Shown here in pieces: positions 1 through 50,269 of a DNA stretch of 64,000 nt. The stretch is from Fodinibius salsisoli. GTDB taxonomy: Bacteria > Bacteroidota > Rhodothermia > Balneolales > Balneolaceae. The stretch is taken from contig NZ_JAGGJA010000003.1 in NCBI RefSeq assembly GCF_026229185.1, positions 248,001 through 312,000 on the forward strand. The letters run 5' to 3'. How positions within the stretch are numbered: position 1 is the first letter of the stretch; the number at the start of each line of letters is the position of its first letter. The notes beneath the pieces were generated by a model. It worked only from the letters and a program-made list of their open reading frames with translations, ran no database searches and was not told the DNA's origin. Both the position numbers and the translations under genes were made by a program.

Positions 1-463
1 CTTTATTAAACAAGTAGATATGAGGCGTCCGGGTAGCACCAAAGGCGGTAGCCAGCTTGCTCCCCTCATCCAGCGCATAGGGAAACTGGTAATTACTTTT
101 TTCAGCACGCGCTTTCATATCCTCCAGGGACTCTCCATCGTCGCGAATAGCAGTATTCGGGTTCAGGGCAATAACGCCGATACCATGCTCTTCCGCCAGC
201 TCGGCAATAGGATTGTAGCGATCTTCCCACCGGCTAACCCAAGGGCAAGTGTTGCAAGAGAAGTTTACTAAAAGGCCGTTCTCCTTTGCTACCTTTTGTA
301 AGGTGAGCATCTCCCCGGAAACATCTTCGACTTCATGGTCAACCATCGGCGCCTGGGCCCCAATAGCAAGTTCATCCATAGCAGTATTTTCTGAGGGCAG
401 AAATCCATATAAAGCGACTCCTACCATTGCAATAAAAGCAAATGCTGCATATTGTTTCTTCAT
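1..463 (-). CDS. thioredoxin-family (redoxin) protein, C-terminus cut by window edge
   Basis: About 154 codons of the N-terminal part are visible; the gene runs off the left edge. The start at 463 opens with a short hydrophobic signal segment (residues about 6-20), so the protein is probably exported. A redoxin fold follows, with a C-x-x-C motif in SCNTCPW at about residue 70 and a cis-Pro-like TRTPH later. The CPW-x-SRW context and the DEGSKLATAFGATRTPH pattern match the thioredoxin-like/AhpC-TSA branch often annotated 'thioredoxin family protein' in Bacteroidota. It lies 6 bp downstream of a second thioredoxin-fold gene on the same strand, so the two are probably co-transcribed and act on thiols in the periplasm. 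The substrate is unknown. Confidence 0.85.
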   Translation of the reverse strand, partial: MKKQYAAFAFIAMVGVALYGFLPSENTAMDELAIGAQAPMVDHEVEDVSGEMLTLQKVAKENGLLVNFSCNTCPWVSRWEDRYNPIAELAEEHGIGVIALNPNTAIRDDGESLEDMKARAEKSNYQFPYALDEGSKLATAFGATRTPHIYLFNK

Positions 464-16116: not shown

Positions 16117-17090
16117 AGTAACCCCTGATATACAATTTTAAGGTTTGAATTAATTTATCCATAAATAAGTGTTTTCGATAACATAGAAAGGCCGCTGATT
16201 CGCTTAACTTACTATCCCATCCACCTTAGCTACTTGCTTTAGCTGTTATACAAACACTTATCCCTTTCTTTAAGTATCAAATATGATGGATAATTATGCA
16301 AATATTTTTATTACTTAGAATATTATTACACAATATTTTTTTGTGACTTATTTTTGCTGCACAACAATTCAATAATTCTAACAGCTATAAATAAGGACTT
16401 GTCTTTTTCAGGATTTAATAACGCCTCTAAATTCTCTTTTAGAGATGAAACTATAAGAAGACCAAGCTCACTAAAAAACCGTTCTCAAAGCAAAACAAGC
16501 TGCATACTGAAACAATAAGAACTTCATATTTAGAATATGACAATGGGCTTCGCTTTAAAATTCAACCTCCTGCTGAAGCAATTAAAGGGGTACTTAACCG
16601 GATACTTTAAAGTTAACATCGTACTAACGAACTTTACTTTTATTGGGACATAATCATCTCTCAATTTCTTTGAATAATTATTTTTAACCTAAAAATATAG
16701 TCCAATCTGTGCGAGCCGCAGTCAAATTTCAAATTCAATTCAAGTTTATGCAAATATATTTCACATCAATGGTTATTGATTCTAAGAAGGCTTTGCAAAG
16801 CCTTCTCTAAATAATCATAAGAACCCAATAGTTTACTCAGGCTATGCTGACAAAAGACTCTACAACTAAAAGAAAAGCTGGTACTTCCCCGGCACTCTAA
16901 AAGAGATTCGTCTTGGTTATCTTAATGTGGTTAAAAATTGGTGTACTAAACAAAGTACCTCTGGCTTTTGCTATAAGATACTCATCGAGGTTTCTCTTAG
17001 AAAAGATGGATAGGGAGATTGAACTGTTACCTGAAGATCTTTAATTCTGTCTCTAACTGCTAAAGACGTTACTAATATGACTCTTAAACC
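16117..17090. other. long A/T-rich intergenic region upstream of susC
   Basis: 974 bp without a gene. The first 150 bp before susC contain an AAGTGTTT (16168-16175) and an AAACACTT (16252-16259) in inverted order, possibly regulatory. A 22-bp perfect palindrome lies at 16785-16806. A stop-to-stop frame at 16449-16610 gives a tail ending in LRFKIQPPAEAIKGVL that could be a decayed gene remnant. No RNA gene is recognised. Confidence 0.5.
16785..16806. repeat. perfect 22-bp palindrome centred on TTTGCAAA
   Basis: Each half reads AGAAGGCTTTG and the two halves are exact reverse complements with no spacer. It lies about 285 bp downstream of the glycosyltransferase stop codon's far side, in a gene-free stretch. 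It is the best-conserved member of the family also seen at 1360 and 21951-22009. Confidence 0.75.
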
Positions 17091-39268: not shown

Positions 39269-40624
39269 CTACCCCTCTTCTTTCTCCAGCTGAGGTTGAT
39301 CAGTAAGCTCATCGGGCAATGATGAATTGGCATTGGCGCCCAGTTCTTTCAGCATCTCTACCTGTCGCACCAAGTTGCCACGCCCCGTACTTAACCGGGT
39401 CATCGCCTGATCATAACTTTCCTGGGTTTGACGAATACGCTGACCAATTTCCTGCATGCTTTCCGCAAAAAGTCGAAACTTTTCGTACAGTGCCCCACCC
39501 CGATCAGCTATCTCCTGCGCATTCTTATTCTGATACTCCTGCTTCCATACACTGTCTATGGTCGCCAATGTTGCCAGCAACGTAGAGGGACTTACGATTA
39601 CAATATTCATCTCGAAAGATTCATGATAAATACTTGTATCATTCTGCAGCGCAATCCCAAAGGCCGGTTCAATTGGAATAAACATTAACACGAAATCTGG
39701 ACTGTTGCCCCCGTACAGCTCTTGGTAATTTTTATTGCTTAGTCCTTTCACATGGCTGCGGATAGAACCGAGATGGTCCCGCAATGCCGCCTGTTGCTCC
39801 TGCTCATCCTCGGCCGAAGCGTACCGCTCATAGGCTGTCAATGAAACCTTAGAATCGATAATCAGGCGCTTCTCATCCGGCAGGTGCACCACCACATCCG
39901 GGTGCAGGCGGCGGCCGTCGTCGGTGGTGTGGTACTCCTGTGTCTCATATTCACGTCCTTTGGTGAGCCCCGACTTCTCCAGGATGCGCTGCAGGATCAC
40001 CTCGCCCCAGTTGCCCTGGGTCTTCGACTCGCCCTTCAGGGCCTTTGTCAGGTCGTTGGCCTCCTTCGCCATCTTCTGGTTAAGCTCCATCAGGTTTTTG
40101 AGCTCCTGTTTCAGCGAACCCCGGGCCTCTACTTCATCTTTGTGGGTCTCCTCCACTTTCTTCTTGAAGGCTTCCATCTTTTCACCCAGCGGTTTCAACA
40201 ACTGGTCCAGCTTCTCCTTATTCTGCTCAGTAAACTTCTTGCTCTTTTCTTCGAGGATCTTATTCGCCAGGTTCTCAAACTCATCCTTAAACCGCTCCTG
40301 CAGCTGCTGCATTTCCTCTTTCTGCTCGCTGAGCCGCTCCTTCAGGTTCCGGTAGTCGGCATTTAGTTCGGCCAGCTGCTTTTCTGCTTCATTAGCGCGC
40401 CGTTCGCTTTCCTTTTGTTCTCGCTCCGTCGATTCCAACTGACGGGCGATATTCTGGTTGCGTTCCTCCAGCCGGGATACCTGCTGTGCGGCCTGCTCGC
40501 GTTCCAGCTCCAGCGCATCGGCCTCTTCTTTACTTAACGCCTGGCTGCTTTTATACCTGAAATGCGCAATGGCGTAGCCGAGAATGAGTCCAACGAGGAT
40601 AAAAAGGATTGCAGTCAATTCCAT
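39269..40624 (-). CDS. rmuC: DNA recombination protein RmuC
   Basis: 451 residues. N-terminal membrane helix (about 4-21), a long coiled coil (about 28-200, rich in Glu, Lys, Gln), then the RmuC nuclease-like domain: GNWGEVILQRILEKSGL, LHPDVVVHLPDEKRLIIDSKV with the D-x-K pattern, and FIPIEPAFGIAL. RmuC limits inversions between short repeats and has been linked to phage defence. It lies just downstream of the Gabija-like pair on the same strand; the 182 bp between them hold no gene. Confidence 0.95.
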   Translation of the reverse strand: MELTAILFILVGLILGYAIAHFRYKSSQALSKEEADALELEREQAAQQVSRLEERNQNIARQLESTEREQKESERRANEAEKQLAELNADYRNLKERLSEQKEEMQQLQERFKDEFENLANKILEEKSKKFTEQNKEKLDQLLKPLGEKMEAFKKKVEETHKDEVEARGSLKQELKNLMELNQKMAKEANDLTKALKGESKTQGNWGEVILQRILEKSGLTKGREYETQEYHTTDDGRRLHPDVVVHLPDEKRLIIDSKVSLTAYERYASAEDEQEQQAALRDHLGSIRSHVKGLSNKNYQELYGGNSPDFVLMFIPIEPAFGIALQNDTSIYHESFEMNIVIVSPSTLLATLATIDSVWKQEYQNKNAQEIADRGGALYEKFRLFAESMQEIGQRIRQTQESYDQAMTRLSTGRGNLVRQVEMLKELGANANSSLPDELTDQPQLEKEEG

Positions 40625-40806
40625 AGTTTGTAAATGAAAAATAGTTCAGTGAAAAATTTAAAAATAGAGCACTGGTGGCAAATAAAACTAACTCTGCCAA
40701 GATTTGGACAGTGCCAACAATATCAGAGTTCTGTCGTCCAGTTTCCAGTGTGGATTGTATAACTTTAAGATATAGAGGGGGGATGACAGCGTAGTGGCAG
40801 AGTAAA

Positions 40807-42771
40807 TTAATTTTTTATTAAATCTTCAATATTCCAACCTGCATTGTCAAGCTCTTCAATGTCGTCATCGGTAATATTTTCCTTGTACATTGCAAGACAA
40901 AGCAAATATTTAGGTCTCGTCATGCCTACAAATATGTTTCTCATTCTTTGCTCTTTTCGCTTTTTAACTTTCTCTCTGTTCCCTTTGAGTGACTCTACTA
41001 ATTTTGATAAATCATGACCATGCATATAAGTTTCCAAAATTAATGTAGCGTCATGCGTCTCACCTTTTATTGAATGTATTGTAGATAAATCTACTTGGAT
41101 GCTCAATTCATCATTCGAATAGCTGTAGGTATTTAAATCTTTCGTACTACCGTCTGCCAATTTAGATACATCAAAACTACTTTCATCAAGATACTTTACA
41201 AATTCTTTCACTTCACCCTTATTATCCCCAGTCAACAAAATTCCAATAATTTCGAATATTGAACTAACTATTTCTTCCCAATTTTCCTTATTCAACTCCA
41301 AAGATAATTCAAGACAATCATAGAAGATTTTATTTAATAACTGGTGTTTCCCAACATCATTTAACCATCTAATAAAACTTCTTTTACTATATCTTTTACC
41401 TTCTTCTGTTTTTGACCCACTTTTACTTAAAATTCTTAAAACCCCTTTTAAAAGAAGATCATAGCTTTCTTTAAACTCATTGTCTTTTTTTAAGAGGTAT
41501 CTACTGAGAAATACATAGTCAATTAGATAAGAAATATTAATATTGGACGTCGTTATTTCTTCGTTGAAATCAGCAAAGTAATCATTGATTAGATATGGGA
41601 AATTTTTGTTTTGCTTAATTTCTTCTTGACTTCTTGAGTCTGACTTTCTTAATCCTATAGCTTTTACTGTATGGCTTTTACTTTCTAGTTTACCAAACTC
41701 ATCAATAACTAATTCACAAAAAGACGGAAGTACTTCCGCGATTGAATTTTTATCGAATAAAAAGATGGTATTTTTAAAATTATTTCGCTCATCAAAACCT
41801 ACTAATTGTTGAGGGTTAATTGCAGTAAAGTAAGAAGCTGAATTTGCAATCTTGTTCCCAAATCTTTTAGAAGTTTTAACCTCGATCTTTTTTTCTTCAT
41901 AAGGAAAATCTTCTAATAAACTTCCTTGGTTACCCGAATATATTGACTGATTGATATCACCAAGTTTTTGAACAGTAGAACCTTCTGAAAAGATATCCTT
42001 TAGAATTTTATCCTGTTGGAAATTTGAATCCTGAATCTCGTCAATAAATACTAATGGGAACCTGGTATTTATTACATTTTTGATTGAAGGAAATTTTGCC
42101 AAATAGTATTCAGAAAAGGCATACATATCATTGAATCGCAAAATTCCTTTGCGAAGTAATTCTAACTTTATCTCTTTAAGTTCTTGATAGGTTTCTATGT
42201 CTTTTCCCCAAGGAAGCTGTTTCCTACCATATCTGGATATATAAGTTAAATCTAACTCTGATCCTTCGAATTCTAAAGTACTGGCGATCCTTTCCCCGTT
42301 GTATTTATGACTAAGAGTTCTTCGAGCATTGTATTTATACTGAAGCAATTCTAAGGCATTTTCTGAGAAAATTTTATTATCAATAAAGCTGATTTCAATC
42401 CCTTTATTCCTTAAAAGTGGGAGAGCGAAATAATTATTGATAAATGATTGTATTGTACCTATAAAATGCGGATAGCCCAATAGATCTAAACCTCCTTCAA
42501 TTTTTGAAAGCCGTTTTTCAATTTCTTCTCTGGCAACGTTCGTATGTGACAATACACAAATTCCTCGATCAGACCACTTCCATTTCTGTGCTAGAATAGC
42601 AAGTTTAGCAACCAATAGAGTTGTTTTTCCACTACCTGGTCCAGCTTGAACATCTAAATTACTTAAACTTTTTAATACCTCATCTCGATTATCTTCGGTA
42701 AAGCTAAAACCAAATATTTTCTCAATTGATGCTATATCCTGATCACTGATATTTAAATCGTTGTCAATCAT
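40807..42771 (-). CDS. gajB: UvrD-like helicase of a Gabija-like system (GajB)
   Basis: 654 residues. Superfamily 1 helicase motifs: Walker A AGPGSGKTT (44-50 for the loop), motif II FIDEIQD (Asp244, Glu245, Asp248), motif V TIHSIKGETHDATL and motif VI FVGMTRPKYLL. It overlaps the OLD-family gene upstream by 4 bp (ATGA). In Gabija, GajB associates with the GajA tetramer and is required for phage defence. The protein is longer than the prototype of about 490 residues. The DNA is clearly A/T-richer than its neighbours, which suggests horizontal transfer. Confidence 0.85.
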   Translation of the reverse strand: MIDNDLNISDQDIASIEKIFGFSFTEDNRDEVLKSLSNLDVQAGPGSGKTTLLVAKLAILAQKWKWSDRGICVLSHTNVAREEIEKRLSKIEGGLDLLGYPHFIGTIQSFINNYFALPLLRNKGIEISFIDNKIFSENALELLQYKYNARRTLSHKYNGERIASTLEFEGSELDLTYISRYGRKQLPWGKDIETYQELKEIKLELLRKGILRFNDMYAFSEYYLAKFPSIKNVINTRFPLVFIDEIQDSNFQQDKILKDIFSEGSTVQKLGDINQSIYSGNQGSLLEDFPYEEKKIEVKTSKRFGNKIANSASYFTAINPQQLVGFDERNNFKNTIFLFDKNSIAEVLPSFCELVIDEFGKLESKSHTVKAIGLRKSDSRSQEEIKQNKNFPYLINDYFADFNEEITTSNINISYLIDYVFLSRYLLKKDNEFKESYDLLLKGVLRILSKSGSKTEEGKRYSKRSFIRWLNDVGKHQLLNKIFYDCLELSLELNKENWEEIVSSIFEIIGILLTGDNKGEVKEFVKYLDESSFDVSKLADGSTKDLNTYSYSNDELSIQVDLSTIHSIKGETHDATLILETYMHGHDLSKLVESLKGNREKVKKRKEQRMRNIFVGMTRPKYLLCLAMYKENITDDDIEELDNAGWNIEDLIKN

Positions 42772-44675
42772 GCTAAGTCTTCGAACTCTTTATTACGTGT
42801 TACGTATTTAATTGCATCAACAATGTACTCTGGCAAATCATCTTCTAAACTTCGATCATACTCTTCTTCCAAATAGTGAGATAATTCTTGAGCAACAACT
42901 GTTTTAGAAAGATTGTGCTCGAAGAATTTGTTATAAATTAAATCAGCCTCATCTTCTTGTTGGGAAATAAGAGCATCATATTCATCTTTTGAATTAGAAA
43001 TAATTTTTTCTTTTTCGTCAGCTAAATCTGAATCTTCATAATTCAGATCATTTGCTAAGTTTATTGCAGTAAGCATTTCCAATCCCAAACCACTTTTGAT
43101 CAGATCATACTCGAGAGTCCAATTTTCTGCAACAAACGTATAAACTGGTTTACCATCGTTCTCTTGCAAACTTTCCTTCTTTTCAGATCGATCCTCATCA
43201 CTGTAATCTCTTTCTGTTTTTTTGTAGTGTTTATCTGCATCATTATTTCCTTCAGAAAAAAAGTCAGATGGAATATCAATATCAGCAATACATGCTACCC
43301 TAATCGGCATTTCTTTATCCTCCTCACACTGTTGAAATATTCTTGAATATCGAAATAAACCTGTATGACCTACATTGACTATTGAAATACCATTTTTTGA
43401 AAAAGAACAACCGATCAATTTTGCAAGTGTTGGTATAAGCAAGTTTTCTGCATCCCCCTCTACAATTACAACCCCTTTTGCAAAAAACAGATTCGCCTTT
43501 GTCACATCTAAAAACCTTTTTAAAAATTGATAGTCTTCCTCTGATAACTTCGTTTGGTCATTTTTTAAACTGTAAGCATTACCATCACCAACCATTATCA
43601 GATTTTGAGGATTAACCTTAGAAGATATATTGGGACTATGTGTTGAAGTTATTATTTGTAGGGATTGATCTGTTAAACCTGCTTTTTCTTCAAGAAAATC
43701 CATTAATCGAACCTGCATTGGGGGATGCAAGTGTGCCTCTGGTTCCTCAATTAATAATAATGGCATTCCAAAGTCGCTTTCACTACTAAGCAAAAGCAAC
43801 TCAGTAGCCATAAATAATATATTATTAATTCCTAGGCCTCTTTTGGTTCGAATTTCTTTATCATCTTCTGGCCTAATCCAAAGTTCAAATTTTTCTAAAA
43901 TTTCTCTTAAAGAAGCTTTTTTGGATATTCCCAATTCACCACTAATTGTATCATCCCCAATTGAAAATTCATTTAAATAGTCTTGATTTATTTTACTCTC
44001 TGAGTCCTCTATATAATCATTATTTTTGATTAGGTACTCTGCCTGCCTCATTATATCAACAAGTGTTTCGGGCTCAAAGTCATTTGGATTTTCATCATCA
44101 AAGTTATCATTCTGTTGTTCTTTGCTATCAGGATGCGCTTCTAAAATCTGTGATAAACGTGACCTCCGACCTGAACTCATTTCTGATTCAGCATCTCTCA
44201 ATGGTTTTAAATAAGTTGTCTTTAAAAATTCCCTTATATCACCTTCAATAGCTTTACCCTGTCCATTTTTTCCTGATCTATAGTTTACTGAAATCCTTCT
44301 GCGATAATTCTTAACATCTCTGTTAAGTGTTGCCTCAAGATTGACAATCAAACATTTTTCTCCATCTACCAAGCTTAACCATTCTAAATATCTTGCAGCT
44401 TCTTCTTTTGTTAAATCTGTAAACGTGCATGAAATTTGAAGGTTTGTTTTTCTTTGATCACCAACTATATGAAAATCCTCTTCAGTAATGCGATGATATT
44501 CATCACTTGTAGTCCATAAAACATGTCTTATAGCATCAATAATTGCAGATTTACCAGAATCATTTTCTCCTACAAGTAAATTTAAGCCTTCCTGAAAATC
44601 TATCTCAAGATGATTATTGTTCTCTTTAGAACCGAATGTTCTGTAATTTTCAATAATAAGATTGGATAAATACAT
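42768..44675 (-). CDS. gajA: OLD-family ATPase/TOPRIM nuclease of a Gabija-like system (GajA)
   Basis: 635 residues. An ABC-type ATPase with Walker A GENDSGKS (36-43), a signature-like RGLGINNILFMATELLLL, and Walker B LLLIEEPEAHLHP (306-318) is followed by STHSPNI. The TOPRIM nuclease has VIVEGDAE (Glu406) and IADIDIP (Asp465, Asp467), the acidic metal set. GajA nicks phage DNA when nucleotide pools fall, in the known Gabija mechanism. An OLD-type gene followed directly by a UvrD-like helicase is the Gabija layout. An acidic insert at about 180-245 and the greater length make 'Gabija-like' safer than 'Gabija'. Confidence 0.82.
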   Translation of the reverse strand: MYLSNLIIENYRTFGSKENNNHLEIDFQEGLNLLVGENDSGKSAIIDAIRHVLWTTSDEYHRITEEDFHIVGDQRKTNLQISCTFTDLTKEEAARYLEWLSLVDGEKCLIVNLEATLNRDVKNYRRRISVNYRSGKNGQGKAIEGDIREFLKTTYLKPLRDAESEMSSGRRSRLSQILEAHPDSKEQQNDNFDDENPNDFEPETLVDIMRQAEYLIKNNDYIEDSESKINQDYLNEFSIGDDTISGELGISKKASLREILEKFELWIRPEDDKEIRTKRGLGINNILFMATELLLLSSESDFGMPLLLIEEPEAHLHPPMQVRLMDFLEEKAGLTDQSLQIITSTHSPNISSKVNPQNLIMVGDGNAYSLKNDQTKLSEEDYQFLKRFLDVTKANLFFAKGVVIVEGDAENLLIPTLAKLIGCSFSKNGISIVNVGHTGLFRYSRIFQQCEEDKEMPIRVACIADIDIPSDFFSEGNNDADKHYKKTERDYSDEDRSEKKESLQENDGKPVYTFVAENWTLEYDLIKSGLGLEMLTAINLANDLNYEDSDLADEKEKIISNSKDEYDALISQQEDEADLIYNKFFEHNLSKTVVAQELSHYLEEEYDRSLEDDLPEYIVDAIKYVTRNKEFEDLA

Positions 44676-45711
44676 CCCCTACTAAATAATTAATTGAAAG
44701 TTAAAATATAACTAACTAAAAAAATCACTTAGCTCATAAGTTTTTAATTTCGTTCATTTTAAATAATCAAAAACAGCTTAATCTCACACAAATTTGAAAA
44801 AGTTACACGGCACCTTACTACCCAACCATTCTCTACCCTTACTTACTCAGTCTCCTTGATATTATAATCCCGGACACTACGAGATACTAAGCTTATAACA
44901 CTCTGAGATATACTTCTCTGTCCGACCGAGCCAATACACCCTGAGATAAGCTTCTGTACTTAAAACAGCCTTAAGGATAAAAAGGCACTGCCAAACAGTT
45001 CTTTGATTTTGTGTATTCGATATCTAATATCAATTAATATGGCAAGTGATATTTAAGTCCCACTTCTACTTAAAACGTAAAAAGCTATGCGACATCAATA
45101 CTGGCAGTATCCAAAATACAATCACGGGGAATTTGAAACGGGAGAGGTTTCCGGGACGGGTGTTATTGTATAAGAGGTGATTTATTTGAGAAGTTATGAA
45201 CAGCCTATACCAATCGCCCCACCACAAAACCAGTGAGGGGACGAGCACAAGACCTCATCGTGCATCTAGGCTTGATGTGCGATGAATAAATGAGTTCGTT
45301 AGTTATCCATTCCTACCGCGACAAAAACAGTCGCAGCACGAATATAACACCTCATCGGTCCCGATTTCTCGGGATCCGGTGAGTGAAAAGCCCTTGCTCT
45401 CTCCCAATCGTCCGACTTAAAACCAGAAGCCGAACGAAAGTCCAACCCTCATTAAGAATCCACATTTAATGTGCGGTGAATGAAATTGCTCCTTTCCATT
45501 TGCCAACATACTCCATGTCTTTCACAAGGTTTTTTGGCTTTGCAAGGTGCAAATTTTCAAGAGGGCTGCTAATTTTTGTTTCAATGTCCTAAATTCACAA
45601 CCAATAGTTACTCCAGCACTTTTGAGTGTAATAAAATATACGAGACTCTTAATTTCTGATTCCCTGGCTTCACCCACATAGCTCTTGAAATACAATAAGA
45701 TCTATAAAATT
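44676..45711. other. gene-poor region upstream of gajA with repeats
   Basis: 1036 bp. The first 120 bp are very A/T-rich and must hold the promoter of the Gabija-like pair. Three related ACACTCTGAGATA-like boxes lie at 44874, 44898 and 44936. The hairpin array at 45222-45485 follows. A conserved-looking box at 45602-45642 resembles one before the next lipoprotein gene (46290-46330). I see no RNA gene or transposase. Confidence 0.55.
45222..45485. repeat. three hairpin-bearing units at a 97-bp period
   Basis: CCTCAT boxes start at 45253, 45350 and 45447, 97 bp apart each time. Each opens an inverted repeat closing in C-G-R-T-G-A-R-T (for example CTCATCGTGCATC with GATGTGCGATGA; CGGTCCCGA with TCGGGATCCGG). 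Each is preceded by a block like AAAACCAG, 19-20 nt, then A-C-C/ACC. The loops and stems differ between units while the ends are kept. Confidence 0.65.
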
Positions 45712-46119
45712 ATGAAGCGAACAACAACCATTACTCTCATCCTGTTCTTATCAGCATTGATCTCCTGTTCATTATTAGACAATAACTCACACGCATCAAA
45801 AATTATCGGTCAGTGGCAATGGGTTCGATCCAGTGGAGGATTTGCGGGTGAGGTTACAACACGAGATTCCGCGGGAGTGCCTGACCGTCATTTTAACTTC
45901 AAGTCCAACGGTGCCTTTACATTCTACCGGACCGATACCCTGGTACAAGCAGGAAAATATTCTTTACAGAAAAAAGAAGGAGATGTGATTATAAGTTATG
46001 ATACAGGACAAAAGGACTTCTTCTTTGATCAAAGAGTAACCTTCAAAGGGAAAGATACATTGATATTATCCGATGAATGCTATGACTGTTATATTCATAC
46101 CTATATTCGAGCTCAGTAA
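45712..46119 (+). CDS. small lipoprotein, function unknown
   Basis: 135 residues from the ATG at 45712; a TTG 27 bp upstream would also be in frame but gives a poorer signal sequence. The lipobox is LISCS at residues 15-19. The rest, with IGQWQWVRSSGGFAGEV, FNFKSNGAFTFYR and GKDTLILSDECYDC, looks like a lipocalin-like 'W-x-W' beta-barrel domain common in Bacteroidota lipoproteins. Two cysteines near the C-terminus may pair. No function can be given. It is in the accessory region beside the Gabija-like pair. Confidence 0.8.
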   Translation: MKRTTTITLILFLSALISCSLLDNNSHASKIIGQWQWVRSSGGFAGEVTTRDSAGVPDRHFNFKSNGAFTFYRTDTLVQAGKYSLQKKEGDVIISYDTGQKDFFFDQRVTFKGKDTLILSDECYDCYIHTYIRAQ

Positions 46120-46411
46120 ATCCGTGGGAGAAACTTATCATTCAATTATTTTTCTCTTCCCAAAGCTCTGCGTTAGAATGTGCAAGAGTTCAATAGATCG
46201 CTGAGCAACGACATTTCTAGAACCGGACACCTATTCTTTACGAGAGAATAGCTCTACTCCTGACATGAAAGATAGGTGCAATATTTCTTCAATAGTTATT
46301 CCCTTGCTCCCGGGTGTAATAGAATGTAGGCCTGAACAGCGAAAATAAGTTGTTGAAACCTACACCTGTATTTATATTTCTCTTAACTATCAAGTAAAAG
46401 GTCCGGATGCC

Positions 46412-46930
46412 ATGTCACTTATCCATCGTTTATACCAGCCAGCAATTCCTTTCATTATGGCCTTCTTGCTGATTATTCTCTCTTTGCCGGCCTGCTCGCT
46501 CTTTGACGGCAATGACCGTAACAGCGCCGATTCCAGTTTCAGAGAAAATCATCAAAAATGGCAGGCAATGGATTATGCTGAATATACCTTTACCCTCGAT
46601 CGATACTGCTTTTGTGGCGGTGGTCTGTATCCTGCTAAAGTAGTCGTTAAAGCAGACACGATATTTAGTGTGCTGGATCCCCATTCCCAAAAGCCTGTCT
46701 CCATCGATTCCACGCTAACCTACGAAGATGTTTATCCCACTGTTGAAGATCTTTTCGATTTAATCAAAGACGCTATGGAAAAAGATGCCGACCGCCTTGA
46801 TGTTGAATACAATAATTTTTCTGGTTTTCCCTGGCGTATCGATATTGATTATAGCAAACAGATCGCTGATGAAGAAATCAGATATGAAATAACTTCCTTC
46901 TCGGGTTCATCACATTTATATCCTGTTTAA
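46412..46930 (+). CDS. DUF6174-like lipoprotein
   Basis: 172 residues. The signal ends in LSLPACSLF. The mature protein has W-x-x-M-D-Y-A-E-Y-T-F-T-L-D-R-Y-C-F-C, the conserved Y-x-F ... R-x-C-F-C block, then VVKADTIFSVLD and a DRLDVEYN strand, which match DUF6174. These are secreted or surface lipoproteins with no known role. It sits 23 bp before the DUF6940 gene and may be read with it. Confidence 0.82.
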   Translation: MSLIHRLYQPAIPFIMAFLLIILSLPACSLFDGNDRNSADSSFRENHQKWQAMDYAEYTFTLDRYCFCGGGLYPAKVVVKADTIFSVLDPHSQKPVSIDSTLTYEDVYPTVEDLFDLIKDAMEKDADRLDVEYNNFSGFPWRIDIDYSKQIADEEIRYEITSFSGSSHLYPV

Positions 46931-46952
46931 TTTAATACCCCAGCTATAATAA

Positions 46953-47543
46953 ATGATGTGGAAACCTATAGAAATTGCATCAAATGATCACTTCCAATCT
47001 TTTGGCATACAGGAGGATGGAGAAAAAATAAACAACCGCCTATTTCTCTATCTGCTGCGTGACTCTTCGGCATTTAGAAATTTTTATAGCCAACTTTTGG
47101 TAGATTGTGACTTTGAAGCCTTCCTGTGGGAAAACAAACCGATGGCTGAAGGGAACATGGATCAGCCCTACGAATGCACGCTTGTGCATAACAGCTATCT
47201 CTCTCGCTGCTCGCCCGACCAGCATACCTTTCGACAATATTTTGACCCTGACCGGCAAGCCGTCTCCTTCCCTAATCTCGGCGGCGATGCCCAATTGATT
47301 GCTCCCTGTCCCCACCAGTCCCCTGAATGCTATACTCATATCGGATCGTTTGTCCGAAATGCAGAACCTGAGCAACAGGATGCATTGTGGTGTATCGCGG
47401 CCGAAGAAATGCTAAATGCTATTGGTAAATCTCCACGCTGGCTCAGCACCAACGGACTGGGCGTCTCCTGGCTTCACCTTCGCATCGACCGGCGACCCAA
47501 ATACTACCAGACCCAAGAATATCGATCATTTTCATCCGAATAA
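46953..47543 (+). CDS. DUF6940 family protein
   Basis: 196 residues, cytoplasmic by sequence (no signal). Matching blocks are FPNLGGDAQLIAPCPHQ, SFVRNAEPEQQDALW and the C-terminal GLGVSWLHLRIDRRPKYYQ, which I associate with the DUF6940 family, also found in eukaryotes. The function is unknown. Start could be Met2 (46956). It lies 23 bp after the DUF6174 gene and 12 bp before an outer membrane protein gene, so an operon is likely. Confidence 0.75.
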   Translation: MMWKPIEIASNDHFQSFGIQEDGEKINNRLFLYLLRDSSAFRNFYSQLLVDCDFEAFLWENKPMAEGNMDQPYECTLVHNSYLSRCSPDQHTFRQYFDPDRQAVSFPNLGGDAQLIAPCPHQSPECYTHIGSFVRNAEPEQQDALWCIAAEEMLNAIGKSPRWLSTNGLGVSWLHLRIDRRPKYYQTQEYRSFSSE

Positions 47544-47555
47544 TACCTTGTCATT

Positions 47556-48272
47556 ATGAAACGACTACTACTTTACCTATTTCCCTTATTCCTCGCCTCG
47601 GCTGCCAGTGCCCAGAGCACCGAATTCTCTGCCCATTTAAACTCAGGCTTATTTTCGTTTGGTGGAAGTTCTGCTACCCATAATTCTTTTATTATTCTCA
47701 GTGATGTAGCCTCTCAAACCAGCTACACCAATAATCCCTATGGAACCCAGAATTCCGTTTCTTATGGATTGGCTTTACAATTGCAACGCATAACCAGCGG
47801 AAATCTCATTTTGGGTACACAGATGGGTTTTGAGCGATTGCGTAGTGAAGTAGAGATTACCAGAACAATTGGAGAAAGAAAGCCGAATGCTCTTTATCCA
47901 TCATTTTCAGGCGAAACACACCTTATCCATCATTTTGTAAATCTTTACCCCTATTTGGGGCATCGGTTTAAGTTTCCTTCTTCCATGGATCTGGATATAA
48001 CTTTGGGGGCGGATATTGCCTTCAATACCAGTAGTCGAGAGAAAGGCGAAGCCAAAGCAGGAGGCAATGATAATATTATAACCACCGACAAAGAACAGAA
48101 TAGCCCCGGCACCGATATCAGGCTGCGGGGGCAGGCTACTTTCTACTATCAACAGTGGGGCTTTTCTGCCGGATATTCCTACGGACTACATAACTATACC
48201 AGCGACTATGTTGGAATCGATGCAGAAACCTATGCCCGGTTCATTCGAATGGGGATTACATATCGATTCTAA
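47556..48272 (+). CDS. outer membrane beta-barrel protein
   Basis: 238 residues. Signal peptide 1-19 (ASAAS-AQS). Alternating-residue strands through the length and a C-terminal MGITYRF, an outer-membrane insertion tail, indicate a small barrel of about 8-10 strands. No closer family is recognised. It probably forms one transcript with the DUF6940 gene, 12 bp upstream. Confidence 0.8.
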   Translation: MKRLLLYLFPLFLASAASAQSTEFSAHLNSGLFSFGGSSATHNSFIILSDVASQTSYTNNPYGTQNSVSYGLALQLQRITSGNLILGTQMGFERLRSEVEITRTIGERKPNALYPSFSGETHLIHHFVNLYPYLGHRFKFPSSMDLDITLGADIAFNTSSREKGEAKAGGNDNIITTDKEQNSPGTDIRLRGQATFYYQQWGFSAGYSYGLHNYTSDYVGIDAETYARFIRMGITYRF

Positions 48273-48284
48273 AAAGCCGCTGGC

Positions 48285-49460
48285 CTATTCTGTGATAAAA
48301 TGATGCCGACAATCCTTGGGAGCACTCACCGGGTTACAGCGACCGGATCCCGTTGCACCGGGTAAGGTGACTTTATAATCCGACCCAAACGAACTGACTT
48401 CCGGAAAGTCTGTACTGATAAACTGGGCCCCGCTTTGCAGGGCCGCGTCTCTCCGGGTGGTATCTCCGGTCCGCGCCTCTTCCAAGGGAATATCCGCCCG
48501 GGTGCGAATGATGTACCCGGCGGCTGCCCGTTCCTTTATCGATTGCCTATCCGACAACACATCATTCATCTTGATAAATCCAGCCGTAGGATGACCAGGC
48601 TCTGAACTTACAAACAAGGCCCCTCCCTCCAAGTTGGGCCTATCAGCCAGGTAGGCCTTTTTGACTTTTCCGGTATTATCTAAAGCAAACAGGACCTTTC
48701 CTCTGCTTTCTGCGAGGGTCGGCCAACCTTCAGTTAGGATAGCTTCTTCAAGTGATGCGAAACGACCTCGCACCTCATCCGGCGTCATCACCTGATCGCT
48801 GGAAAACGCCTGCCATATCTCTTTGTCAATTTCTTTAATATTGGATGCATTAACAGGGACCGGCTTAACGAAACTATGATTCCCTGAGGAAAATTGTCCT
48901 GCTACTCCCTTGTCTTTTACCTCCAGCAAAACCATAATAGGTAAATGGTTGGGATGCCCTGAGGACCAGTCGTTAATTTCAGAAAGGCATGCGGTCAGCG
49001 TGAGGCATTGCGAGCGGTAGTCCACATCCGGTACGTGAAGGACCTTGAAGCCCGGCCGCATCATTTCCTCCTTCCTGAGATACGCTTTGTCGCCGGTCTG
49101 GATCGCACCAAGGGGTTCAGCAAATAATCCTCCCTGTGGATCGGCAAAAATATCCAGCTCAAATTGTCGGATCCCCAATCGCTCAAGCTGCTCTTTAAGC
49201 GGATGATGAGTATATTGCAGATTTTTAGCCCAGCCCGGCCTCTTCCCATTAAACAACGCTACTGTTTCTGCTGTTGGAGCTTGGTGATAGCTGTTGTGCG
49301 TGCCCAGTAGTTGGATCTGGTTCAGTCGCAGGCAATCATCAACATTAGCTTTCGTTATATCTTCGCACTTGGGGGAGGCTGTTTGCTGTGCGGCTGTAGT
49401 ACCAACAAAAATTGATGCTAATAGCAATAGACTACAGAAAAAAGGAAGAAGTCGGAACAT
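48285..49460 (-). CDS. Ca2+-dependent phosphatidylinositol-specific phospholipase C-like protein
   Basis: 391 residues. A signal peptide (about 1-24) is followed by a PLC-X-like TIM barrel: LLGTHNSYH holds the first catalytic His, then FELDIFADPQGG, FKVLHVPDVDYRSQCLTL with a second His, and MVLLEVKDKG. FISTDFPEV ends the barrel. Related bacterial proteins are annotated 'phosphatidylinositol-specific phospholipase C1-like, Ca2+-dependent'. It would act outside the inner membrane on a phosphodiester head group; the real substrate is unknown. It converges with the outer membrane barrel gene (12-bp gap). Confidence 0.9.
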   Translation of the reverse strand: MFRLLPFFCSLLLLASIFVGTTAAQQTASPKCEDITKANVDDCLRLNQIQLLGTHNSYHQAPTAETVALFNGKRPGWAKNLQYTHHPLKEQLERLGIRQFELDIFADPQGGLFAEPLGAIQTGDKAYLRKEEMMRPGFKVLHVPDVDYRSQCLTLTACLSEINDWSSGHPNHLPIMVLLEVKDKGVAGQFSSGNHSFVKPVPVNASNIKEIDKEIWQAFSSDQVMTPDEVRGRFASLEEAILTEGWPTLAESRGKVLFALDNTGKVKKAYLADRPNLEGGALFVSSEPGHPTAGFIKMNDVLSDRQSIKERAAAGYIIRTRADIPLEEARTGDTTRRDAALQSGAQFISTDFPEVSSFGSDYKVTLPGATGSGRCNPVSAPKDCRHHFITE

Positions 49461-49564
49461 ATTTAAAGGGAATCAAAAATTTTTGTTAAATACTGAATGT
49501 TTTAATCTTCAATTTGATTAGCATATCTAACGATTAAACATAACCGAATTTTTACGATAGTATT

Positions 49565-50269
49565 ATGAAAATAGAAATATGGTCCGACATTATGTGTCCC
49601 TTCTGTTACATTGGCAAACGAAGGCTGGAAAAGGCGCTGGATCAATTTGATCATTCCGATGATATCGCTTTGGAATGGAAAAGCTATCAGCTTAACCCGG
49701 ATATGAAAACCGACGCTGATGCCAATATTAACGAGTATCTGGCTCAAACAAAGGGTTGGTCCGTTGCACACGCCCAACAGATGAATCAACGTGTTACCGA
49801 TATGGCGGCCGCAGAGGGATTGGAATATAATATGGATGAAGCAGTCGTAGCCAATTCTTTCCAGGCACATACGCTCATCCAGTACGCCAAATCCCAAAGT
49901 CTGGGTGACGAAGCTGAAGAAGCTCTGTTTGAGGCCTACTTTATTAAATCCAGAAATATTGACGATACCGAAACGCTCCTCGACATCGCCGTTCAAGTTG
50001 GACTGGATCCTGATGAATCACATAAGGCACTTTCCAGCGATACCTATGCTGAAGCTGTTAAAGCAGACATCCAAGAGGCCAGAAATATGCGGGTTCGGGG
50101 CGTACCTTTCTTTTTACTTAATAAAAAATATAGCATTTCCGGTGCGCAGGATACGGACATCTTTTTACAGGCTTTGAACAAAGTATGGAAAGAATGGAAT
50201 GAGCAACAAGATACCGTTGAACTTTCCGAACAAAGCGATGCTGCCTGTGATGTTGATGGCAACTGTTGA
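49565..50269 (+). CDS. FrnE-type DsbA family oxidoreductase
   Basis: 234 residues without a signal, so cytoplasmic. The redox site CPFC is in IWSDIMCPFCYIGKRRLEKAL near residue 12; the cis-Pro loop is RGVPFFLLNKKY. FrnE-like proteins are 2-hydroxychromene-2-carboxylate isomerase/DsbA relatives that protect thiols under oxidative stress. The C-terminus ends in ACDVDGNC, two extra cysteines that could serve as a second redox pair, as in Deinococcus FrnE. Divergent from the PI-PLC gene. Confidence 0.93.
   Translation: MKIEIWSDIMCPFCYIGKRRLEKALDQFDHSDDIALEWKSYQLNPDMKTDADANINEYLAQTKGWSVAHAQQMNQRVTDMAAAEGLEYNMDEAVVANSFQAHTLIQYAKSQSLGDEAEEALFEAYFIKSRNIDDTETLLDIAVQVGLDPDESHKALSSDTYAEAVKADIQEARNMRVRGVPFFLLNKKYSISGAQDTDIFLQALNKVWKEWNEQQDTVELSEQSDAACDVDGNC

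What the first reader, a model, noticed from the sequence alone, without database searches (positions are those of the whole stretch)
40807..44675. Gabija-like anti-phage pair with long GajB and an acidic GajA insert
An OLD-family ATPase/TOPRIM gene overlaps by 4 bp a UvrD-like helicase gene, the layout of Gabija. Motifs of both enzymes are intact (GajA Glu406, Asp465/467; GajB DEIQD). Both proteins are longer than the prototypes I know (about 578 and 494 residues), and the DNA is A/T-rich against its neighbours. It may be a divergent Gabija subtype.
Basis: partly seen in the sequence, partly recalled or inferred. Interest (0 to 1): 0.6.

Follow-up and report, generated by a model that had tools for sequence, protein, structure and literature searches.

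The report
Ordinary long-form Gabija anti-phage pair
This is a complete, apparently horizontally acquired Gabija anti-phage defence operon (a nuclease plus a helicase-like protein) of a long form that is already catalogued and widespread in bacteria and archaea; nothing about it is unusual except a rather acidic amino-acid make-up that it shares in part with its host's genus.

Summary
In detail: an OLD-family ATPase/TOPRIM gene (44675-42768, 635 aa) overlaps by 4 bp a UvrD-like gene (42771-40807, 654 aa), in a 32% GC island between 46% and 44% GC flanks. Both proteins match PADLOC Gabija models over their full length (GajA PDLC00099 E=4e-208; GajB PDLC00147 E=4e-169), far ahead of any other defence family. 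Catalytic residues are intact. The 'divergent subtype' idea fails: PADLOC's best models are themselves 626 and 637 positions long. Among 69 close GajA relatives from public genomes and viral contigs the median length is 648 aa, 68 have an adjacent GajB (median 646 aa), and the window's GajA nests inside that clade. The 'acidic insert' is not an insert: the segments are as long as in relatives but richer in Asp/Glu, a bias shared by Gabija of two genus-mates. The pair is absent from the same site in eight genus relatives read, so it is an accessory, probably laterally acquired system. Verdict: a new member of a known kind; low interest.

The parts
42768..44675 (-). gajA: class 2 OLD-family ATPase/TOPRIM nuclease, 635 aa; Walker A 36-43, E406, D465, D467, E522, K591
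   Evidence: ORF; PADLOC GajA E=4e-208; Pfam AAA_15 and OLD-like_TOPRIM; invariant residues 100/100; fold
40807..42771 (-). gajB: UvrD/PcrA-like SF1 protein, 654 aa; Walker A 43-50, DEIQD 244-248, R303, K569-G570, R619
   Evidence: ORF; PADLOC GajB E=4e-169; Pfam UvrD-helicase; fold
42768..42771 (-). 4-bp overlap of gajA stop and gajB start (translational coupling, inferred)
   Evidence: coordinates; same 4-bp overlap in L066 and L067
40625..44950 (.). A/T-rich accessory island holding the pair, next to core gene rmuC (39269-40624)
   Evidence: GC profile; absent from the rmuC site in 8 genus relatives

Best explanation
The pair is an intact Gabija system of the common long-protein clade, acquired horizontally into a variable interval next to rmuC. 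By homology, four GajA form a tetrameric core with GajB bound at its ends; GajA's TOPRIM site (E406, D465, D467) nicks or cuts phage DNA, gated by its ABC-type ATPase domain, and GajB is needed for defence. The trigger is probably linear phage DNA that the host RecBCD does not occupy, as proposed for the Pseudomonas PA14 Gabija; this host does encode RecBCD-type genes. Shown here: gene layout, family, intact catalytic residues, predicted fold, accessory distribution. Inferred: assembly, DNA cleavage, trigger and phage protection.
For: Full-length best hits to GajA and GajB profiles. TOPRIM catalytic set matches BcGajA E379/D432/D434 (paper PMC10781630; alignment) and is invariant in 100 homologues. 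Predicted GajA (pLDDT 90.5) has B. cereus GajA as its top Foldseek hits (8u7i_A E 8.8e-22) and Z about 20 over 416-491 residues. 68 of 69 close relatives carry an adjacent GajB. Tree places GajA inside a 74-row long-form clade, SH-aLRT 100. Patchy in the genus, at different sites in the two genus-mates that have a close homologue. RecB, RecD and RecC-like genes in the host. Gabija-RecBCD model from PMC12407980.
Against: No phage test. Sequence identity to the solved B. cereus proteins is only about 20% on structural alignment, and the GajB model resembles UvrD/PcrA (Z 24.5) more than BcGajB (Z 16.8, rmsd 7.8), so mechanistic details may differ. Whether the genes are expressed is unknown.
Confidence: 0.94

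Rival explanations
1. A divergent new Gabija subtype, with an acidic GajA insert and enlarged GajB giving new function.
For: Both proteins exceed the B. cereus prototypes; GajA is the most acidic of 100 homologues compared (D+E 0.198 vs median 0.143) and GajB of 93 (0.154 vs 0.120).
Against: Lengths are at the clade median; the acidic segments are not longer than in relatives; PADLOC already holds 626- and 637-position models that match end to end; genus-mates' Gabija proteins are acidic too (GajA 0.191 and 0.182) and 37% of the window's ORFs of 180 aa or more have pI under 5.
Confidence: 0.03
2. A different OLD/helicase defence or repair pair (retron Eco8 effector, PARIS AriA, Septu PtuA, stand-alone Old) rather than Gabija.
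For: Weak cross-hits to AriA, Old, retron Eco8 and PtuA models.
Against: Those score 47-102 bits against 691 bits for GajA, and the adjacent gene is a full-length GajB.
Confidence: 0.01
3. A degraded or inactive remnant of Gabija.
For: Remnants do occur: in genus-mate G001 gajB has lost its N-terminal half.
Against: Here both frames are open over the full length and all catalytic and helicase-motif residues invariant in the family are present.
Confidence: 0.02

Closest known systems
Gabija GajA/GajB, PADLOC clusters PDLC00099 (GajA) and PDLC00147 (GajB)
   Same: Full-length match of both proteins; adjacent genes
   Different: Ordinary sequence divergence; more acidic composition
Long-form Gabija on plasmids: Rhodococcus opacus pR1CP1 (L066), Aeromonas salmonicida pS44-1 (L067), Cupriavidus pMTS3 (L068)
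   Same: GajA 625/670/690 aa followed by a UvrD-like protein of 645/636/664 aa, with a 4-bp overlap in the first two; 40-42% identity in GajA
   Different: Plasmid-borne; no special acidity of the window's degree
Bacillus cereus VD045 Gabija (solved structures 8sm3, 8jqb, 8u7i)
   Same: Same two-domain GajA fold and TOPRIM catalytic residues; SF1 GajB
   Different: 578 and 494 aa against 635 and 654; about 20% identity on structural alignment; BcGajB lacks several UvrD elements (PMC10681800), whereas the window's GajB aligns best with full UvrD/PcrA

Membership tests
Gabija | GajA: ABC-type ATPase domain with C-terminal TOPRIM domain, hitting GajA profiles above other OLD families | tested here: met
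   PDLC00099 691 bits; best non-Gabija families AriA 102 bits, Old 98 bits; AAA_15 and OLD-like_TOPRIM over Pfam cut-offs
Gabija | TOPRIM catalytic residues (BcGajA E379, D432, D434) | tested here: met
   E406, D465, D467 present and invariant in 100 homologues
Gabija | Adjacent GajB, UvrD-like SF1 protein hitting GajB profiles | tested here: met
   PDLC00147 562 bits over 7-651; 4-bp overlap
Gabija | Fold of GajA like solved GajA | tested here: met
   AlphaFold model pLDDT 90.5; top four Foldseek hits are GajA; Z about 20
Gabija | GajA4:GajB4 assembly | not testable with these tools
   Complexes were not modelled
Gabija | Phage protection requiring both genes | not testable with these tools
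   Needs a plaque assay
Gabija | Accessory, patchy distribution | tested here: met
   Close homologue in 2 of 11 genus-mates (43-44% identity), at other sites; absent from the rmuC site in 8 genus relatives
   635 and 654 aa against clade medians 648 and 646; segment lengths normal

The most novel reading that the evidence does not exclude
The long-form clade's GajB, whose model aligns with complete UvrD/PcrA better than with B. cereus GajB, may be a working helicase or translocase, so that long-form Gabija would act differently from the B. cereus prototype, whose GajB showed no helicase activity.
Probability: 0.15. Interest if true: 0.4.

Novelty: new member of a known kind. Interest (0 to 1): 0.1.

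Why it matters
Little on its own: it adds one more intact long-form Gabija operon.

Tried and rejected
A scan of genome contigs with the single GajA sequence found nothing; the alignment-based scan then gave 79 loci. Looked for flanking direct or inverted repeats marking a mobile element around 40500-46000: only short imperfect pairs of the kind A/T-rich DNA gives (no shuffled control was run); no tRNA in the window. Two large ORFs beside rmuC in genus-mates gave no PADLOC hit. A literature search combining Gabija, GajA, subtype, phylogeny and clade returned five papers, none with a Gabija subtype scheme in title or abstract.

Full report
Observation. All quoted motifs are present at the quoted residues. 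The stretch has GC 0.320 against 0.462 and 0.443 in the 4-kb flanks and 0.437 in the window.

Identity. Against PADLOC, protein 1 matches GajA model PDLC00099 over 1-629 (E 4.2e-208, 691 bits) and protein 2 matches GajB model PDLC00147 over 7-651 (E 4.0e-169, 562 bits). The nearest non-Gabija models (AriA 102 bits, Old 98 bits; RTasHel 75 bits) are far behind. Pfam gives AAA_15 plus OLD-like_TOPRIM, and UvrD-helicase. NCBIfam has no model over its cut-off. Among solved sequences GajA hits class 2 OLD nucleases and B. cereus GajA, and GajB hits UvrD, PcrA and B. cereus GajB.

Is it a divergent subtype? No. The best PADLOC models are 626 and 637 positions long, so the long form was already modelled. 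An alignment-based scan of GTDB species genomes and viral contigs gave 69 GajA with a blastp score over 250 bits to the window protein: median 648 aa (range 578-738), 68 of them with a GajB next door, median 646 aa (some of the shortest GajB frames are cut by contig ends or broken). Three plasmid examples were read. In a tree of 112 GajA, the window lies inside a 74-row clade (SH-aLRT 100) that includes Pseudomonadota, Bacillota, Bacteroidota, Actinomycetota, Chloroflexota and a methanogen; its nearest rows are actinobacterial and proteobacterial, not the copies of its two genus-mates G001 and G009 (quick method, support near the window 90-94, so its exact sister is unsure). That is what lateral transfer between distant hosts would give.

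The acidic 'insert'. The variable segments after D467 (44 aa), at 176-225 (49 aa) and at 540-616 (76 aa) are about as long as in 99 homologues (medians 52, 46, 75), but have the highest or joint-highest Asp/Glu content (about 0.30 against medians 0.16-0.18). The whole proteins are likewise the most acidic of those compared: GajA D+E 0.198 (median 0.143), GajB 0.154 (median 0.120). Gabija GajA of the two genus-mates is acidic as well (0.191 and 0.182), and 37% of the window's ORFs of 180 aa or more have pI below 5. The simplest reading is a composition bias of this lineage, perhaps salt adaptation (inference); it is not a new module.

Catalytic integrity and fold. K42, E310/E311, H346, E406, D465, D467, E522 and K591 are invariant in 100 homologues; E406 and D465/D467 correspond to BcGajA E379 and D432/D434 (PMC10781630). 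GajB keeps Walker A, DEIQD, the GD..Q motif, R303, KGE and R619. The AlphaFold model of GajA (pLDDT 90.5, pTM 0.88) has B. cereus GajA as its top Foldseek hits and Z about 20 to GajA chains over 380-490 residues, with Thermus OLD nuclease at 23.7. The GajB model (pLDDT 87.8) aligns with PcrA and UvrD (Z 24.5 and 23.0 over 427-429 residues) better than with BcGajB (Z 16.8, rmsd 7.8). BcGajB was reported to lack the gating helix, GIG motif and separation pin and to show no helicase activity (PMC10681800); whether the long form differs was not tested here.

Genomic setting. rmuC, the neighbour at 39269-40624, is in 12 of 12 genus genomes. In the eight rmuC neighbourhoods read, no GajA or GajB lies there; where the DsbA-like gene that follows the variable interval is found (six of eight), the interval between rmuC and it is about 1-7 kb and holds genes with no match in the window. 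Close GajA homologues occur in two of eleven genus-mates, at other places in their genomes. Strain-level comparison within the species was not possible with one genome per species.

Mechanism. By homology: GajA tetramer braced by GajB, TOPRIM cleavage of phage DNA (PMC10781630). A 2025 preprint proposes that Gabija acts on linear DNA lacking RecBCD (PMC12407980). The host has RecB (976 bits, cut-off 696), RecD (585 bits, cut-off 310) and a RecC-like gene of which only part lies in the stretch read (383 bits, below cut-off), so that model could apply; this is inference.

Verdict. A typical long-form Gabija, new member of a known kind, low interest.

Noticed in passing
L055:9770-10636 (genus-mate G001): Genus-mate Gabija whose gajB keeps about 20 N-terminal codons, a stop, and then only the C-terminal part (matching window GajB 386-652): the helicase N-terminal half is missing beside an intact GajA.
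   Followed up: partly
L065:6058-7813 (G125): GajB split into two frames (161 and 404 aa) beside a GajA: probably broken or a frameshift.
   Followed up: no
window 40625-49565: Interval between rmuC and a DsbA-like gene is variable in gene content across the genus (about 1-7 kb where both were found in relatives): a likely integration hotspot. Two large ORFs beside rmuC in relatives (L048:13472-15121, L049:11422-13458) gave no PADLOC hit.
   Followed up: partly
window 16117-17090: A second A/T-rich stretch (GC 0.33) without an ORF of 80 aa or more, between a TonB-linked outer-membrane protein-like gene and a glycosyltransferase-like gene.
   Followed up: no
L068:1760-4933: A Shedu nuclease gene and a phage-type integrase lie directly upstream of the long-form Gabija on Cupriavidus plasmid pMTS3, a small defence island.
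   Followed up: no
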